Source of the DNA: Agelas oroides
Taxonomy: Eukaryota; Porifera; Demospongiae; Agelasida; Agelasidae
NCBI GenBank assembly: GCA_949130485.1
Contig: OX422201.1
Span: forward strand, 5,136,516 to 5,200,515
Direction: 5' to 3'
DNA: 64,000 nucleotides
Under the pieces are notes generated by a model. That model was given only the letters and a program-made list of their open reading frames with translations. It had not been told where the DNA came from and did no database searches. The position numbers were made by a program, and so were the translations under genes. Positions 5,101 to 58,438 of this stretch are shown here, in pieces; position 1 is the stretch's first letter, and every line of letters starts with the position of its first letter.

Positions 5101-6217
5101 TTCCTGTTTGTTTGGGAGCGAGTGCCAAGCTATGAGGTCATCTTTGCCTTTGCTATTGGCTGGGGGGTGGCAGATGCAGTCTGGCACAATGTGTCATGCA
5201 GTAGGTTGCTGTACATGCATAAGTATGCCTATATTGTTAGTAGCTAGCCTCGTTTCATACTCAAAGCTTCCCCCCCCCCCAGCTTTTGTTGCATGCTATA
5301 CATGCACAGCTGGGCTGGGGAGGAGCCTGGGAGCAAAGGAGGTTAATTACACTTCAACAGGCTTCTTTGCAGTGCTAGACAGTACAGCTAGGCCAATGCT
5401 CTGCAAGCTAAATGTATAGGTGCATGTCTGTTACACGCCTACAATCATTCATGAATGTTTCAGTATCTTCACTATATGATTGCACCAATGTTACTTTTGA
5501 TATATTGCTTGCTGGTAGCAGTTCAGTTTAGAACATAAGAGAACATTGATGTCTACCACCATCATTTCTCGTGATGCTCATACCAGGAGGGTGTTGGCCT
5601 GTTATATGAAGTTCTCTGGCTACATGCATGGTTATTTCAAGTTGCATGCATTTGTGTATCATCCACATGAATACTGCACACCAACATTCACAGACCTGTA
5701 CGACTATGTATCTTTTGCAGGTCTGACTGGAATCCTGTTTTCTGACAGATCAGAGACGGCCTATAGTATAGTTCGTATCTGGCAAGCATTTGGTTTTACA
5801 GCTGGATTTGGCACTGCTGAGTTACTGTCTTTGGAAGCACGCCTGTGCCTTCTGCTGGCTACTGTATCCTTTGCAACACTCTGCAGTCTCGTGGTGGAGT
5901 TTAAAACCCAAACAAAGGCACAGCTTCTCCCATGTGTTTCCAAGAGTGACAGTGGACCTGGGAATGCTCCTCGTAATGAGAAGAATTTACCTGCTGATGC
6001 ACCATTTGCTACATACAGTGGAAGATCAAGCTGCTCTTGCATACATACAACCATAACCAGTCCAAGAAGTTCAACCATTCCAGATCCATTGACTGTGACT
6101 ACACTGGCTGAAGGTGATCAGTGCTACTACAAGCCTGAAGGGCTTCAAAGAAACTATTCCATCTATCATTCACCGTCATACCTTGCTGCTCTCAACAACT
6201 CTCCATGTCTTATATAG
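2126..6217 (+). CDS. UNC93-like multipass membrane protein (3 exons)
   Basis: Exons 2126-3088, 4936-5200 and 5721-6217 join in phase (0, then 1) to give 574 aa. The start is the ATG at 2126; the frame is open 36 bases further upstream but only to a TTG. The protein is hydrophobic with 11-12 predicted membrane segments of the MFS fold. Family-typical stretches are visible: NLQSSINSAGGLG near the start of the first helix, FASAPLWAAASTHITK, WGVADAVWHNVS across the exon 2/3 junction, then IWQAFGFTAGFG. A loop with several N-x-S/T sites lies between helices, and the C-terminal ~110 residues form a polar Ser/Tyr-rich tail not expected in UNC93A. UNC93 proteins act in endolysosomal trafficking (UNC93B1 carries nucleic-acid-sensing TLRs) or as K+-channel regulators (nematode unc-93). 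Which role applies is not visible. Intron 1 holds a 363-bp palindromic element. Confidence 0.88.
3229..3591. mobile_element. MITE with terminal inverted repeats of the CAGTGGCGGATTTAG type
   Basis: The left end reads AGTGGTGGATTTAG and the right end CTAAATCCGCCACT, followed inward by G-runs on one side and C-runs on the other. Length is about 360 bp with no coding capacity. Such CAGTGGCGGAT ends are common on hAT-like non-autonomous elements in invertebrates (recollection, not a search). I could not see a clean target-site duplication. It sits in intron 1 of the UNC93-like gene. Confidence 0.65.
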
Positions 6218-6408: not shown

Positions 6409-7224
6409 ATGCGATCGCGATGGAGGGCAGATCACCCAAGCAAGGAATTTGGAGAGAAATTTGCCTTTCTCTATTCCACAATATGGATGAGTTTTCTAGC
6501 CATCGTTGTGTTTTTTAAGTGGTATGAGTTCTTCACTCCTAACGACTACCTGATGGTAGGGCTTGGTTTAGCTCTGCCGTATGTGGTGGGTCCTTTGGTC
6601 CTAGCGAGGGGGGAAGAGAGACGACTGCCCCTTACACAACGTTATATCATGAAGGCGAACCTGTTTGTGGCCATCTTGAGTTACATTGGGAACCATTTCT
6701 ACACGCACTACTTCTTCAATGTACTTGGGGTGCGCTATACTGGTCCACTTGCTCAAGGAATGGGATTCGAAATCAACAAAGTTCCAATTTCAATGTTTTT
6801 GATGACCCACGTCTATTTCATGTCTTACCACATTCTGATTACCCCACTCATTCGAACTCTGAAGAACACATTCAGATCCTACAGTGCTACAGTCCAGTTT
6901 GTGGTTACTACCATTGGTATTGTCATCATGGCATTCTTCACTGCTGTTGCAGAAACGTGGACAATGAGTAGCTTTCCTTACTACACTTACCCAAATGCAA
7001 GTGAGATGCTCACAAAGGGCTCGGTGTTCTATGGAACCTACTTTGTGGTGACCTTTCCATGGTTCTTTAGGTTAGATGAAGACACCAAGCATCCCTGGAG
7101 GCTAAGTAGGGTTGTTGTGGAAGCCTTAGCCTCAATGATGGCGGTTCTTCTCTGCGCAGATTTCTGGAGACTAATCCTGGAGTATTTTGAACGCCTGCCC
7201 TCTCAGAGACTTCCATATGCTTAA
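6409..7224 (+). CDS. CPI1: Cycloeucalenol cycloisomerase (cyclopropyl sterol isomerase), intronless
   Basis: 271 aa from the ATG at 6409, no intron. The family opens the 9beta,19-cyclopropane ring of cycloeucalenol to obtusifoliol in phytosterol synthesis in the ER. The match runs over the whole length: WRADHPSKEFGEKF near the start (plant WLA..PSKRWGE), SYIGNHFYTHYFFNVLG (plant SYVGNYFWTHYFF.VLGA), PISMFLMTHVYFMSYH, ETWTMSSFPYYTY (plant ETIAIANFPYYEF), GTYFVVTFPWFFRLDED and LSRVVVEALAS....DFWRLIL. Length matches plant CPI1 (about 280 aa). Five to six hydrophobic segments are present. It lies in tandem 191 bp after the UNC93-like stop and convergent with the filamin-repeat gene. Animals normally make sterols via lanosterol, which lacks the cyclopropane ring, so the substrate is unclear. 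Lack of introns in an intron-rich locus fits horizontal transfer or retroposition, but other genes in this window are intronless too. Confidence 0.93.
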   Translation: MRSRWRADHPSKEFGEKFAFLYSTIWMSFLAIVVFFKWYEFFTPNDYLMVGLGLALPYVVGPLVLARGEERRLPLTQRYIMKANLFVAILSYIGNHFYTHYFFNVLGVRYTGPLAQGMGFEINKVPISMFLMTHVYFMSYHILITPLIRTLKNTFRSYSATVQFVVTTIGIVIMAFFTAVAETWTMSSFPYYTYPNASEMLTKGSVFYGTYFVVTFPWFFRLDEDTKHPWRLSRVVVEALASMMAVLLCADFWRLILEYFERLPSQRLPYA

Positions 7225-7872: not shown

Positions 7873-9825
7873 TCAGTTCTTCTCCACCATGATCAAGAAT
7901 GGGCTGCCATAGATTTCATTTTCTGCTCCTTCATCTCCCCACAATAGGTGGAGCTTATACGAACCATGGTCTTTAGGAATGAATGATACAAGCATTGTTC
8001 CATCCTCATTACGAGACAGCTGGAGATCAGCTTTTGAAGGACCCTCTAGCTTTGCACGAAGTGGTCCTGCTCCAGCCCCTTCCTTTGGTTCTACAGTAAT
8101 AGTGCCAAGCTGATTACACTTCATGCCACTACCACTTAAGATCTCTCCACTAGCAAGTACATTCTTAGCATTTCGAACAGCCTTGCCTGTGACGGTGGCA
8201 GTGAACGGACTTCCAGAGATATGTTGGTTGGCCCACAAGATATCAATCTTGTAGTCACCTGGTGCAATGGGATGATAAGTAACCTGCATTGTACCATCTT
8301 CATTGTTTTGGATCTCTATCGGCTTTGGAGGATGAGGACCAGAGACTGAAACTCCCAGGGAGCCAGGGCCCGCTTCATCAGGGATCTTGACAGTAAAACA
8401 GGCTGGTTTACCTACCTCACCACGTGACGTACCTTCTCCAGATGCAGTGCATAGCTCAGGTTTTACCGCTCGACCTTCTCCTTTGACTTTGATCGTCCAG
8501 GGGCTAGCTGGAACTTCATCACTGCCCCACTTCAGAATTAGTTGATACTCACCAGGATCACGACACACAATAATCACTTCAACACCCTCTTCACTGGAAT
8601 TATCTGCTTTGATATCTGGTTTTGATGGTCCGACCATTCTCACTCCAAGGGGCCCGGGCCCAGCTCCAGCCTCACCCTCAATGAATATCTTAAGTGGTTC
8701 TCCAACATCTCCACCCTCAAGACCTTTGCCTGTGACATTAACTTTCGTTGGATCATTTATAGTGGTTCCACTGACGGGAACAGTGAAGGGGCTTCCATGC
8801 ACATGTGCTTCCCCCCATAGCACTCGAATAGTGTAATCTCCAGGCGCTGAGGGATGGTAAGTCACACCAACTGAGTGATCTTCCGGGTTTTCTACCATCT
8901 CAACTGGTTCAGCCTTCGACGGCCCAAGAATATGGATACGCATTCGTGCATAGCCTGCATCCTCCTTGCATCTGATAGTAAAATGACATGGCTCTTCTGT
9001 TGAACCTGACATGAGACCAGGTCCTTCTGCGGAGCATTTGTCTGTGTACGATGCAAACTGGACGTGAGCGGTGAAGGGGCTACCTGGGATGTGTTGCCCT
9101 TTCACTTTGATTGAAACGGTGTGGTCACCAGCAACTGCTGGAAGGTAGGAACACGAGAATTGACCATTTCCGTGTGCATCAATCTCAACTGGCTTGGTTC
9201 CTGATGGCCCAGTCACCACAACTTCAAGGTCATCTTTATCAGTAGTGTGTGGACAAGACACCTGGAAGTCTCCAAAGCAGTTCACTTCAAAGGTCTCCAA
9301 ACCAGGCCCAAATGCAACCATTGCAACAGGCTGCTGGACAGCAGGTACGATGCCACCAGCGAGATCTTCAGTCTCGCGCCCTTTGGTTGCCGTTGCCACT
9401 ACCTTTTGGTGCAGCACGGACGGGGCAGGTGGGGGCTCGGGGGCGGATGGGGGTCCCTTCTTCACCGTGGAAGGAGGCTCCCCACCCCCAGCGCTCTTAA
9501 CTTGCATCGTGTAGGAACTAACGTGGATCTTCCTCTTGGGCTTTGGGGCGACCGGAGGCGGGGTCTTCTTCTTGGTTGACGTCTTCCCAGCGAAGCTGAT
9601 CACCGAGTCGAAGAGATCATCAATTTCTTTCTGCGCGTCGTTTGGTGATTTCTTTACCTTCAAGCTCACCGTCGACGCCTTTGTGGTAGCAGGTGGAGGA
9701 GGGGGAGGAGGAACCGGCACCGAAGAGGAGCTCTTCACAGTCACAGTAGCTGTCACCGTTCCGCTTCCACCACCGCCAATCCCAAGTTCTTCCAGGAGGT
9801 TATCAGTCGCCAAATCCACGTTCAT
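7873..9825 (-). CDS. Filamin-repeat protein with proline-rich N-terminus, no actin-binding domain
   Basis: A single 650-codon exon. Residues 1-175 are low complexity: an opening amphipathic stretch ATDNLLEELGI that resembles an LD motif, a run of prolines (PVPPPPPPPA), a second acidic-hydrophobic stretch EIDDLFDSVISF, and an SH3-ligand-like PPPVAPKPKRK. From about residue 176 five consecutive filamin Ig-like repeats follow, each ending in a signature such as HIPGSPFTAHV, HVHGSPFTVPV, EVPASPWTIKV, HISGSPFTATV and EIYGSPFLIMV. There are no calponin-homology domains, so this is not a full filamin. Filamin repeats bind integrin tails, receptors and scaffold proteins, so an adaptor at adhesion sites is a reasonable inference. 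The next gene, PHF12, is on the same strand upstream with its stop 352 bp from this ATG. Confidence 0.9.
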   Translation of the reverse strand: MNVDLATDNLLEELGIGGGGSGTVTATVTVKSSSSVPVPPPPPPPATTKASTVSLKVKKSPNDAQKEIDDLFDSVISFAGKTSTKKKTPPPVAPKPKRKIHVSSYTMQVKSAGGGEPPSTVKKGPPSAPEPPPAPSVLHQKVVATATKGRETEDLAGGIVPAVQQPVAMVAFGPGLETFEVNCFGDFQVSCPHTTDKDDLEVVVTGPSGTKPVEIDAHGNGQFSCSYLPAVAGDHTVSIKVKGQHIPGSPFTAHVQFASYTDKCSAEGPGLMSGSTEEPCHFTIRCKEDAGYARMRIHILGPSKAEPVEMVENPEDHSVGVTYHPSAPGDYTIRVLWGEAHVHGSPFTVPVSGTTINDPTKVNVTGKGLEGGDVGEPLKIFIEGEAGAGPGPLGVRMVGPSKPDIKADNSSEEGVEVIIVCRDPGEYQLILKWGSDEVPASPWTIKVKGEGRAVKPELCTASGEGTSRGEVGKPACFTVKIPDEAGPGSLGVSVSGPHPPKPIEIQNNEDGTMQVTYHPIAPGDYKIDILWANQHISGSPFTATVTGKAVRNAKNVLASGEILSGSGMKCNQLGTITVEPKEGAGAGPLRAKLEGPSKADLQLSRNEDGTMLVSFIPKDHGSYKLHLLWGDEGAENEIYGSPFLIMVEKN

Positions 9826-10177: not shown

Positions 10178-23870
<13,693 letters not shown>

Positions 23871-37499: not shown

Positions 37500-38675
37500 C
37501 TACTCTGAAGTGTCTCTTAGAAGTGCTTCCTTCAACGTCTCATAATCTTGCCTCAACTGTTTGTCTGTTGGAGACAGTTTCAGTGCTGCATCATAATCTT
37601 GCAAAGCTAAGTCCAGACTACCAACATTAGCATATGCAGTTCCTCTCCTCACGAAAACTTTAGTCCGTGAGGCATAGTTTGATGGCACTACAGGGTAAAA
37701 CAGCCCCAGCGCTCTGCAGCAATCACTGATACAACTGTCATTGTCTCCGGTTGCTAGGTAACAAGCAGCTCTGTTTGAAAACAAGTGAGGTAAGTTAGGA
37801 TTTAGCTTGATTGCCTCAGAGAAGGCATTGATGGCAGCCTCAAAATTCCTAGCCTTGAAAAATTCTACTCCTTTGTCTTTGAGAAACTCTGGGTTTCTCT
37901 CATTCAAGTCTCCATCGCTGTTGTTCTCTGGTGGTTTGATCCGGCGAGCAGCAGCCATCTTTGCAAGCCACTCCTGTTCCTCTTGCTCCTTTGACTCTCT
38001 CGCAGCTGTTGGAAACACACGGGGAGTGAAGTGGACTTGAATACTACCTGCTTTTCGAGGAGGTTTGGGTGGAGCACTAGTGTCCTTCTCCTTCCAGATC
38101 CTTCGAGACGATGACTGAGATGTCTGCTGAGCAGCTAAACTGGCTGCTTCTCTCTTTGCTTTGGCCTTGATTCTCTTCTCTTCTTTCCACCTCTCAAGCT
38201 CCTTCTCAGCCTTTTCTCTCTCCTCCTGCTTTTCTTGCTTGATCCTCTCTCGCTCTTCCTCCTCCAGCTTCATTTGCTGTTTGATCGCATACCGTTCTTC
38301 CTCTCTCTTCTTCTTAGCTTTCTGCTCTGCCAACTCAGCCGCTTTCTTATGGGCATACTCAACCGCTTCCACTCGCCTGTCTACCATGAAATTCCTGTCC
38401 TCTGACTCGGCAGAACTCAATCTGCCCCACAGTCCAGGCTCCTTTTTGATTAGTCTAAAATCAATGACTCCATTCCCCACTTTAGCAGTACACTGCTCCT
38501 CCACAACAGGTGCGTAAAGATGCACCTCGAATAAATAGGGTGGGTAATTCACTTTGACATACTGGTCAGAGGAGAATATGTCTGCCTTGCTGCTCTTCAC
38601 CCCCTTTAGGGGTAGAGTGATGCTCACTTCTGTCTCCGTCTCCCTCCAAGTATAGTCCTTCACCGCGACAGGCAT
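37500..38675 (-). CDS. DNAAF4: Dynein axonemal assembly factor 4 (DYX1C1), intronless
   Basis: 391 aa in a single exon. Residues 1-90 form a CS (p23-like) domain: VKDYTWRETETEVSITLPLK, VKVNYPPYLFEVHLYAPV and VGNGVIDFRLIKKEPGLW. A charged coiled coil follows at about 100-190 (KKREEERYAIKQQMKLEEEE). The conserved linker IQVHFTPRVFPTAARES comes next, and from about 265 three TPR units (NPEFLKDKGVEFFKARNFEA, LFSNRAACYLATGD, VFVRRGTAYANVGSLDLALQ). Human DNAAF4 has the same order and is about 420 aa. With HSP90/HSP70 it helps pre-assemble ciliary dynein arms in the cytoplasm, so this implies motile cilia or flagella. The start codon is 111 bp from the divergent SEL1-repeat gene. Confidence 0.95.
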   Translation of the reverse strand: MPVAVKDYTWRETETEVSITLPLKGVKSSKADIFSSDQYVKVNYPPYLFEVHLYAPVVEEQCTAKVGNGVIDFRLIKKEPGLWGRLSSAESEDRNFMVDRRVEAVEYAHKKAAELAEQKAKKKREEERYAIKQQMKLEEEERERIKQEKQEEREKAEKELERWKEEKRIKAKAKREAASLAAQQTSQSSSRRIWKEKDTSAPPKPPRKAGSIQVHFTPRVFPTAARESKEQEEQEWLAKMAAARRIKPPENNSDGDLNERNPEFLKDKGVEFFKARNFEAAINAFSEAIKLNPNLPHLFSNRAACYLATGDNDSCISDCCRALGLFYPVVPSNYASRTKVFVRRGTAYANVGSLDLALQDYDAALKLSPTDKQLRQDYETLKEALLRDTSE

Positions 38676-50793: not shown

Positions 50794-55241
<4,448 letters not shown>

Positions 55242-55760: not shown

Positions 55761-58438
55761 TCAGTACCCTCCTTGATCCCCAAACTTCTTCTCGATGAGG
55801 TCATTGTAAGGGTTGACAGGCGGAAGGACCTTGGGGCTAAGGTTCTGTAGCCTCTCCCACATGATCTCTGTCTCAAGAGCGTTGGCTTGCTGGTTAGGAT
55901 GGAAGCCATCGACAGGTTCAATCAGTTGCCATGGCTCTCCTCCCTCCGCTACCCACCTCTTGAAAGCTTCTTGCACTGGAGGATCAAAGTAGTACAGCCT
56001 CATGTTTTGGAAGGTTTCGTTAGCAACCAGCTCCCTGAGGGCCACATTGAGCTGCATGGCTCTTTCAGTGGTCAGATTTCTCCAAGTCGCATTGCTGTTC
56101 ATCCACCCAAAACAAGGGGATATCTGGAGACAGTTAAAGTAGTCATAGAACTGGGAATAAGTCACATCTTTATGTAGTGAGCCTATTGGGTGGATGCGTG
56201 TACTCAGAGAGTCATAGAGCACTCTACCATCAACCAAACCCAAGGCAATGAGAACAGAACCAGGGGCCACTATGGAATCTACATAACGGAAGGTTCTCAA
56301 ATTGTTTGCATAGAACTCTTCAGGAGTGGTCATGTGCGAGGTACCAGGGTGTCCACTACACACATCGTTTCCCAGCAATGCAAATGTAAGAAGTACTGGA
56401 TTATCCTTTGAGCCATGCCTGGAAAAACTCTGCACTATTGTGTCTGCCATCGCGGAGGACCGAGCTCCATTAACAGCTATGCTCTGGTAGTCTCTATGGT
56501 TACAACGATTGAGAGCCCTTGCCCTGAGGTATCCAGAATCAACAGGACCCTGGATATCTTTCCAAGTAGAGTTCTTGTAGCCAGTTGCACTCGAGAGCAT
56601 TGGCCAGTCTAACTCATTCTCCAGAATGAAAAAGAGGTCTTGAAATGCCTCCACACTCAGGTTCTTGCTGGTAAACCATGCTGGGGGGAGGTGGAAGTGA
56701 GCCCCAACACTGTCCCCCAGGATCACCGTACCCATCTGACCAGTCCCATTGCACCACATAGACTCATAGGTTTTTCCTGTGTCTGGATCCACTCCATATA
56801 CCCCATTGCAGTTGGTATCAAAAACTGCATCATCCGTGGTGTATCTTCCAGGGTAGATATTCTTATCCGTATCCATACAGTCCTTCCCACGCCAAGAGGT
56901 ACCTCTGAAAGTTGAAATGTCAGAGAAATAATCCCCATCAATGTCGTCTACAGGAAGGTGGTCAGTTCCAAACCGGTCGATAATGTCACAGATTGGCTTT
57001 ACCACACTGATGTTGCACAGATCTGGAAACCTGGCAGAACAGAATAAGGTGAGACATTCCCAATAGACAACCACTTTGATGCTGACTATTGATGTGAGTA
57101 TAACATGCTGCTATAGGAGGTACATAGGACTATGAAGCTCCAGATTGAAGTACTATCACTCCAAACTGCAGTCACAGAATAACAGATTTAAGAATTCAAT
57201 TTTAGTTAGCATCAATGAAAGAAGTCTCAGAAAACTAAGTTTACACCACATACTTTAGCAGGACTATCAGGTATCAATACACTAAGCTCTACAGCAACAA
57301 CCTGTGTGACTCTCTGACTAAGAGAAATACTTCAGTGGATGGTGGCATCCATGGACGGGATCTCTTGGATAGGACTAATATATCACTGATTAGGAGAACT
57401 AATACAACACTTTGATCCTGCAACTACCAAACACAGCTACGAAAACCCCACAACCGAGGAATTTTTTATATATAGCGAACCGAAGGTTATATGTGCCAAA
57501 ATATGGGATTTTTTCTCTTATATGGGGGTTATATATGTTTGTTTAATGGACGGTAGCCATGTATACTCAGTGTGTGGGATGTGTTTTTTTTTCATCTATA
57601 TCACTGATTAGACAATGCACTTCCCTACTACAACAGTCAATCCAACCCAGACCAAAGGTTCAAAGGTTCGTCATGATGGTAGCCATCATCAACACCTCAC
57701 TTGTAGTACAGAGTTCACCTATAGCACAGAGTCCACTTATGCAAACTGCTGAAGACAAATGGCCAGTCTCGAACACTGTGTATATTTTACGTCCCTACAT
57801 ACACTGCACGATATGGCTACATGTTTATACTAGGACTGCAGCGCAATGTGATAGCCAATGGAGAACACAGCGGTTGGCATCGTCTTATGCCCAGTTCTCC
57901 TGCCAACATTCCAGGTCAAGTCCTACAACACACTCTAAAACTTTAACATTGTCTTCAGAAGCCATGTACAACAAATAGCTAACCTAAAGTTAGATAGCTT
58001 TTTCCGAGTGGACGCTGCCATCTCTCTAGCCCGACGGATCCTCTCGCTCAGCTCCTCTTTCGTGCCGTGAGGCAGCGGAAACAAATGGCACACTTCTCCA
58101 TTCTCTTCCTCACAGAGATCAATTGCCAGACACACCACGTCCGGTGTCTCCTTCTTTTCCAGCATCTCGATGACTACTGGACCGAACGTGTCCACCAGGG
58201 CTTCGCATCCCTCGCGAAACCCGCTTGGTAAAAAGCTACAGAACCGGGACAGAGCGTCCGATACGGAGATGTTGTAGATCTCCGTGAGTTGCTCAGCTAG
58301 TCCGACCAACACAGCGCATGTTGCACACGTCGTTCCACCGTTGACTCCTCGCTGGAGAAAGGGAGGCACCCTTACCGCGTCCACACTTGATGGAGCACGA
58401 GAGAGCACCAAGATCAACACAGCAGACGCCAAAAACAT
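55761..58438 (-). CDS. AOAH: Acyloxyacyl hydrolase (2 exons)
   Basis: Exons 58438-57984 and 57030-55761 join (AG|G, Arg152) to 574 aa; human AOAH is 575 aa. A signal peptide (MFLASAVLILVLSRAP) is followed by a saposin-B domain (about 35-120) with paired Cys, such as CATCAVLVGLAEQL. Then comes the calcium-binding-like DDIDGDYFSD and the GDSL esterase fold. Block I is VILGDSVGAHFH with nucleophile Ser259, block II NGARSS, block III GNDVCSG, and the catalytic His529 lies in EPVDGFHPNQQ. The C-terminal FGDQGGY matches the vertebrate FGDQGG end. AOAH removes secondary acyl chains from lipid A of bacterial LPS, detoxifying it in endolysosomes or outside the cell. In a microbe-rich filter feeder it could tune responses to symbiont or food bacteria (inference). 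The two-exon structure is much simpler than the human gene. Confidence 0.96.

What the first reader, a model, noticed from the sequence alone, without database searches (positions are those of the whole stretch)
6409..7224. Plant-type cycloeucalenol cycloisomerase in an animal locus
The protein matches CPI over its full length with the family's invariant segments (GNHFYTHYFF, FPYYTY, TFPWFFRLDED). CPI opens the 9,19-cyclopropane ring, which exists only in cycloartenol-derived sterols. Animals use lanosterol, so they should not need it. Yet the gene lies between an UNC93 gene and a filamin-repeat gene, both animal. Either the host makes or salvages cyclopropyl sterols (sponges have unusual C24-alkylated sterols), or the enzyme has a new substrate, or it was acquired by transfer from an alga, protist or bacterium. 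The lack of introns fits transfer.
Basis: partly seen in the sequence, partly recalled or inferred. Interest (0 to 1): 0.88.

Follow-up and report, generated by a model that had tools for sequence, protein, structure and literature searches.

The report
Sponge cyclopropyl-sterol isomerase gene (CPI)
This is a real sponge gene for the enzyme that opens the three-membered ring of plant-type sterols; it looks odd in an animal that makes lanosterol, but sponges were already reported to carry this gene and to convert cycloartenol.

Summary
Window 6409-7224 (+) is one intact 271-aa reading frame, 40% identical over 264 columns to Arabidopsis CPI1 (recalled sequence). It sits inside a multi-megabase contig of a 259-Mb genome, with one match there, itself, near animal-type genes. 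The genome carries silicatein-type motifs, so the host is a sponge.

The puzzle is genuine but already in print. A 2016 paper says CPI1 orthologues had been found in several sponges and a choanoflagellate, and reports one in Capsaspora (PMC4967820). A 1989 study is described as showing that most sponges convert cycloartenol as well as lanosterol, though symbiont enzymes were not excluded.

New here: the only oxidosqualene cyclase locus found has the lanosterol-type residues T381/C449/V453, so this sponge is not expected to make cycloartenol. SMT, EBP-family, squalene epoxidase and sterol-reductase genes are also in the genome. Best reading: a CPI inherited from holozoan ancestors and kept to process cyclopropyl sterols from food or symbionts. 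Recent transfer has no positive support: other ORFs here are intronless and base composition is ordinary. Substrate and phylogeny are untested.

The parts
6409..7224 (+). CPI1-type cyclopropyl sterol isomerase (cycloeucalenol cycloisomerase) gene, coding region in one open frame, 271 aa
   Evidence: ORF; 40% identity over 264 columns to recalled Arabidopsis CPI1; single match in the genome
2090..3121 (+). exon/ORF of an UNC-93-type gene upstream (context)
   Evidence: Pfam PF05978, E 6.1e-19
7873..9825 (-). 650-aa filamin-repeat ORF without introns, convergent with CPI (context)
   Evidence: Pfam PF00630, E 3.9e-85, five stretches

Best explanation
The gene encodes a sponge CPI1: a membrane isomerase that protonates the 9beta,19-cyclopropane ring of cyclopropyl sterols and releases the C8 proton to give a delta-8 sterol (the chemistry is recalled from the plant enzyme, not shown here). 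It is a host gene, probably inherited from a holozoan ancestor rather than recently acquired. Because the one cyclase found in the genome is lanosterol-type, the substrate most likely comes from outside: cycloartenol-type sterols from filtered algae or from symbiotic microbes, which CPI converts into intermediates that the host pathway (sterol reductases, EBP-type isomerase, SMT) can finish. Shown: the gene, its family, host linkage, single match, lanosterol-type residues of the cyclase found, presence of the other families named. Inferred: activity, substrate, vertical descent.
For: Near-full-length similarity to CPI1 far above shuffles. Single match at 5.14 Mb of contig C19. Silicatein motif with Cys to Ser in 2 of the 7 loci that showed a papain-type active-site motif, of 9 loci examined (the silicatein search had 65 matches). 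The cyclase is one locus on C4: all 11 matches at E up to 1 with TIGR01787, each below that family's whole-protein cut-off because the gene is split, and all 16 matches at E up to 10 with recalled Arabidopsis CAS1 lie there. Its exons read GTNGSQLWD and GGFPFSTVDCGWTVSD, i.e. T381, C449, V453 in human numbering, by alignment with Y410, H477 and I481 of recalled CAS1. PMC4967820 and PMC4919349 give these as lanosterol-type, V453 being the residue that tracked the product in bacterial cyclases. SMT on C17 (exon motifs), EBP family on C7, squalene epoxidase on C19, ERG4/ERG24 family on C21 and C10. Capsaspora shows the same combination: CPI1 at 38% to Arabidopsis with a T381/C449/V453 cyclase. 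Sponges are reported to transform cycloartenol and lanosterol, without the cyanobacterial symbionts (passage in PMC10077716, citing Kerr et al. 1989; title seen in reference lists).
Against: No assay and no expression data. No phylogeny was possible, so vertical descent rests on the published distribution only. The lanosterol assignment is from residues, not product. PMC10070321 says of the early sponge feeding studies, Kerr et al. among them, that enzymes of bacterial symbionts cannot be excluded (passage), so the 1989 activity need not be this gene's. Another lanosterol-only lineage, Symbiodiniaceae, has no CPI (PMC7527140 passages), so such organisms do not generally keep the gene. The cyclase search is exon-wise, and PF13243 missed even the cyclase that is there (0 matches), so a divergent second cyclase could be missed. 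PF05241 does not tell EBP from EBP-like proteins, which lack isomerase activity.
Confidence: 0.66

Rival explanations
1. The host makes small amounts of cycloartenol itself, as a by-product of its lanosterol-type cyclase or through an undetected second cyclase, and CPI recycles it into the main pathway.
For: Would explain retention in Capsaspora and sponges alike without an outside source; the exon-wise search can miss genes.
Against: The one cyclase found has all three lanosterol-type residues, and all 16 matches to a recalled plant cycloartenol synthase fall on that locus.
Confidence: 0.14
2. The sponge enzyme has a different substrate, for example another isomerisation in sterol rings or the cyclopropane in the side chains of some sponge sterols.
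For: No cycloartenol synthase was found in the host; side-chain cyclopropane sterols are known from sponges (PMC6278499 section 4.3, passages).
Against: CPI1 also occurs in Capsaspora and S. rosetta; that these lack side-chain cyclopropyl sterols is recalled. Similarity to the plant enzyme runs over nearly the whole length. An EBP-family gene is present, though EBP and EBP-like were not told apart.
Confidence: 0.1
3. The gene came into the sponge lineage by transfer from an alga, protist or bacterium.
For: Coding region without introns; family best known from plants and protists.
Against: Other ORFs of this genome lack introns too. GC 0.453 and GC3 0.518 against window GC 0.457, filamin ORF GC3 0.441 and UNC-93 ORF GC3 0.468. 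CPI1 in other sponges and in unicellular holozoans. No relative confirmed in genome contigs, viral contigs or plasmids; searches are short-pattern scans and weak.
Confidence: 0.08
4. Assembly contamination from an alga or symbiont.
For: Sponge samples hold many organisms (general knowledge).
Against: The gene lies 5.14 Mb into a contig that also carries squalene epoxidase exons and animal-type neighbours, at host base composition.
Confidence: 0.02

Closest known systems
Arabidopsis CPI1 (cycloeucalenol cycloisomerase)
   Same: Homologue over nearly the full length, 40% identity over 264 columns, conserved segments (reference sequence recalled).
   Different: Plants make phytosterols from cycloartenol (PMC8172173 passages); in this genome only a lanosterol-type cyclase was found.
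Sponge and S. rosetta CPI1 orthologues (Gold et al. 2016, as reported in PMC4967820)
   Same: Same gene in the same kind of host, as stated in section 2.1 read. Gold et al. itself is not held.
Capsaspora CAOG_06065 CPI1
   Same: CPI1 in a genome with a lanosterol-type cyclase and an SMT.
   Different: Capsaspora is unicellular and has ERG2 homologues; ERG2/Sigma1R gave no match here, but no control rang either.
EBP sterol delta8-delta7 isomerase
   Same: Also a membrane sterol isomerase that works by proton transfer (recalled).
   Different: A separate EBP-family gene is present on C7; CPI matches no Pfam family.

Membership tests
CPI1 / cycloeucalenol cycloisomerase | Full-length similarity to a characterised CPI1 | tested here: met
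   All present in the alignment; only two sequences were compared
CPI1 / cycloeucalenol cycloisomerase | Polytopic membrane protein | tested here: inconclusive
   Four hydrophobic peaks here, five in the Arabidopsis protein by the same rule; single-sequence model all helical but pLDDT 45.9
CPI1 / cycloeucalenol cycloisomerase | Opens the 9,19-cyclopropane of cycloeucalenol | not testable with these tools
   needs an enzyme assay
Organism of the cycloartenol route | Cycloartenol synthase with Y381/H449/I453 | tested here: not met
   the only cyclase found has T381/C449/V453
Lanosterol synthase (host cyclase on C4) | T381, C/Q449, V453 | tested here: met
   exons at C4:11594367 and C4:11594984 (positions; translations)
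Silicatein (host identity) | Cathepsin-like protein with active-site Cys replaced by Ser | tested here: met
   QGQCGASYAFS in L024 and L026, against QGQCGSCWAFS in L018

The most novel reading that the evidence does not exclude
Sponge CPI has shifted its substrate from the ring cyclopropane to the side-chain cyclopropane of sponge sterols, opening it to build the unusual alkylated side chains used as sponge fossil biomarkers. The genome data (CPI kept while no cycloartenol synthase was found) do not exclude this.
Probability: 0.04. Interest if true: 0.8.

Novelty: already known. Interest (0 to 1): 0.27.

Why it matters
A CPI in an animal whose only detected cyclase is lanosterol-type suggests that the animal can finish sterols begun by algae or microbes. 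That bears on who really makes sponge sterols, and so on how sponge steranes in ancient rocks are read. The gene's presence in sponges is already in print; what remains open, and testable with this gene, is its substrate.

Tried and rejected
Rejected: contamination (contig position, neighbours, composition). Rejected as evidence: lack of introns as a sign of transfer. Replacement of a lost EBP-type isomerase looks unlikely, with the caveat that EBP and EBP-like were not told apart. Led nowhere: Pfam and NCBIfam gave no match; prokaryote scans with the single protein (19 pattern matches, 0 confirmed) and with alignment A1 (46, 0 confirmed), and viral contigs (36, 0 confirmed) are short-pattern scans, so absence is not shown; plasmids by tblastn at E up to 1 gave none; PF13243 missed the split-exon cyclase; the ERG2 family gave nothing and no control rang; the single-sequence structure model was too poor to search (mean pLDDT 45.9), so no fold search was made; Gold et al. 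2016 and the paper looked up by DOI 10.1093/gbe/evp036 are not held. A lead from a search listing that CPI occurs in the fungus Mortierella alpina was false: that paper says no homologue was found (passages). In one search my script translated the C449/V453 exon in the wrong frame; the reading rests.

Full report
What was checked. The ORF at 6409-7224 (+) exists as described and codes for 271 aa. No Pfam family (E up to 0.001) or NCBIfam family (E up to 1) matches it. As a control, 500 shuffles of the protein were compared with the same reference: 442 gave an alignment, the best at 28.9 bits, against 206 for the real protein under those settings.

Where it lies. The window is G000:C19:5136516-5200515 of a genome of 259,295,671 bases in 141 contigs; CPI has one match there, itself (2 candidates scored). 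ORF 2090-3121 matches UNC-93 and ORF 7873-9825 (-) has filamin repeats. The ORF just upstream of CPI (5546-6217) matches no Pfam family. Squalene epoxidase exons lie on the same contig at 2.35 Mb (6 matches, all there). CPI has GC 0.453 and GC3 0.518; the window GC is 0.457, the filamin ORF has GC3 0.441 and the UNC-93 ORF 0.468. Nothing found suggests foreign or contaminating DNA.

The host. A recalled silicatein sequence gave 65 matches from 75 candidates. I examined 9 loci from that search: 7 showed a papain-type active-site motif, and 2 of these 7 (L024, L026) read QGQCGASYAFS, where silicateins have Ser in place of the catalytic Cys; the other 5 read CGSCWAF or CGSCYAF. The host is therefore taken to be a sponge with silicatein. 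That silicatein marks siliceous sponges is recalled.

The sterol pathway of the host. One oxidosqualene cyclase locus was found: all 11 TIGR01787 matches at E up to 1 (none over the family's whole-protein cut-off, as expected of a split gene) and all 16 matches of recalled Arabidopsis cycloartenol synthase at E up to 10 fall within C4:11590234-11598593. A search with PF13243 found nothing, which shows how exon-wise searches can miss a gene; a PF13249 search did not complete. The two diagnostic exons read GTNGSQLWD and GGFPFSTVDCGWTVSD (splice context), that is T381, C449 and V453 in human numbering, matched through Y410, H477 and I481 of the recalled CAS1. Two papers give these as lanosterol-type (PMC4967820 section 2.1; PMC4919349 section 14). 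Sterol C24-methyltransferase lies on C17 (82.5 bits; further exon motifs), an EBP-family gene on C7 (two exons; EBP and EBP-like not told apart), and ERG4/ERG24-family reductases on C21 and C10. The host thus has much of a lanosterol-to-24-alkyl-sterol pathway plus a CPI for which it makes no evident substrate. CYP51, the C4-demethylation enzymes and DHCR24 were not searched for.

Introns. The neighbouring filamin-repeat ORF (650 aa) and the C21 sterol-reductase ORF (425 aa) also lack introns in the coding region, so the sign carries little weight here.

What is already known. PMC4967820 (sections 2.1 and 3.1 read) reports CPI1 in Capsaspora, 38% identical to Arabidopsis, with a T381/C449/V453 cyclase, and says that Gold et al. 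2016 found CPI1 orthologues in several sponges and in Salpingoeca rosetta; Gold et al. is not held. PMC10077716 (passages) states that most sponges transform cycloartenol and lanosterol into 4,4,14-demethyl sterols and that symbiotic cyanobacteria are not involved, citing Kerr et al. 1989 and a second paper; I saw the title of Kerr et al. in the reference lists of PMC10077716 and PMC10070321, not the paper. Against this, PMC10070321 (passages) says that in those early studies the enzymes of bacterial symbionts cannot be excluded. The gene in sponges is thus in print, and the activity is in print for sponges with their symbionts. Against a general rule that lanosterol-type organisms keep CPI: Symbiodiniaceae have lanosterol synthase and no CPI (PMC7527140 passages).

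How it most likely works. CPI protonates and opens the 9,19-cyclopropane ring to give a delta-8 sterol (recalled chemistry of the plant enzyme). The substrate most likely comes from eaten algae or from symbionts. PMC10070321 (passages) reports bacterial sterol gene clusters in demosponge metagenomes and a sponge whose cyclase transcripts were bacterial, so outside supply is plausible; that those bacteria make cycloartenol is not stated in the passages I saw. Rivals are by-product cycloartenol from the host cyclase, a changed substrate, and transfer. A tree could not be built, since the collections that I could search hold no eukaryotes other than this genome; prokaryote, viral and plasmid searches confirmed no relative, which for the first three is weak evidence.

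Verdict. Real, correctly identified, host-encoded, and already known in kind. The contribution of this window is an example from a highly contiguous sponge assembly in which CPI stands in one genome with a single detected, lanosterol-type cyclase. On rechecking, the confidence in the best explanation was lowered slightly (0.68 to 0.66), because of the symbiont caveat; the transfer and contamination rivals were each raised by 0.01 to match.

Noticed in passing
L014:681-1336 (G000:C4:11590280-11590935): In the lanosterol synthase gene, an exon end with its apparent splice donor is repeated as a 73-bp tandem array, 9 copies, 98% matches. Which donor is used is unknown.
   Followed up: partly
L014:5877-7407: A 23-bp minisatellite of about 67 copies inside the same gene.
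   Followed up: no
G000:C21:6753014-6754246 (L032): A sterol reductase of the ERG4/ERG24 family is a single 425-aa ORF without introns, while a second one on C10 is split.
   Followed up: partly
G000:C19:2352287-2358467: Squalene epoxidase matches cover the end of the family profile twice (201-272 near 2352.3-2352.6 kb and again near 2357.1-2357.5 kb), which may mean a second, partial or tandem copy.
   Followed up: no
window 55764-57074 (-) and 57938-58438 (-): A GDSL-lipase-like ORF beside a saposin-like ORF.
   Followed up: no
window 37503-38675 (-): An ORF without introns with a CS domain and TPR repeats; it resembles the ciliary dynein assembly factor DYX1C1/DNAAF4 (recalled).
   Followed up: no
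window 14319-15563, 19894-20865, 53482-54246: Long low-complexity stretches (purine/pyrimidine-rich or CA repeats) that give long, probably spurious ORFs on both strands.
   Followed up: no
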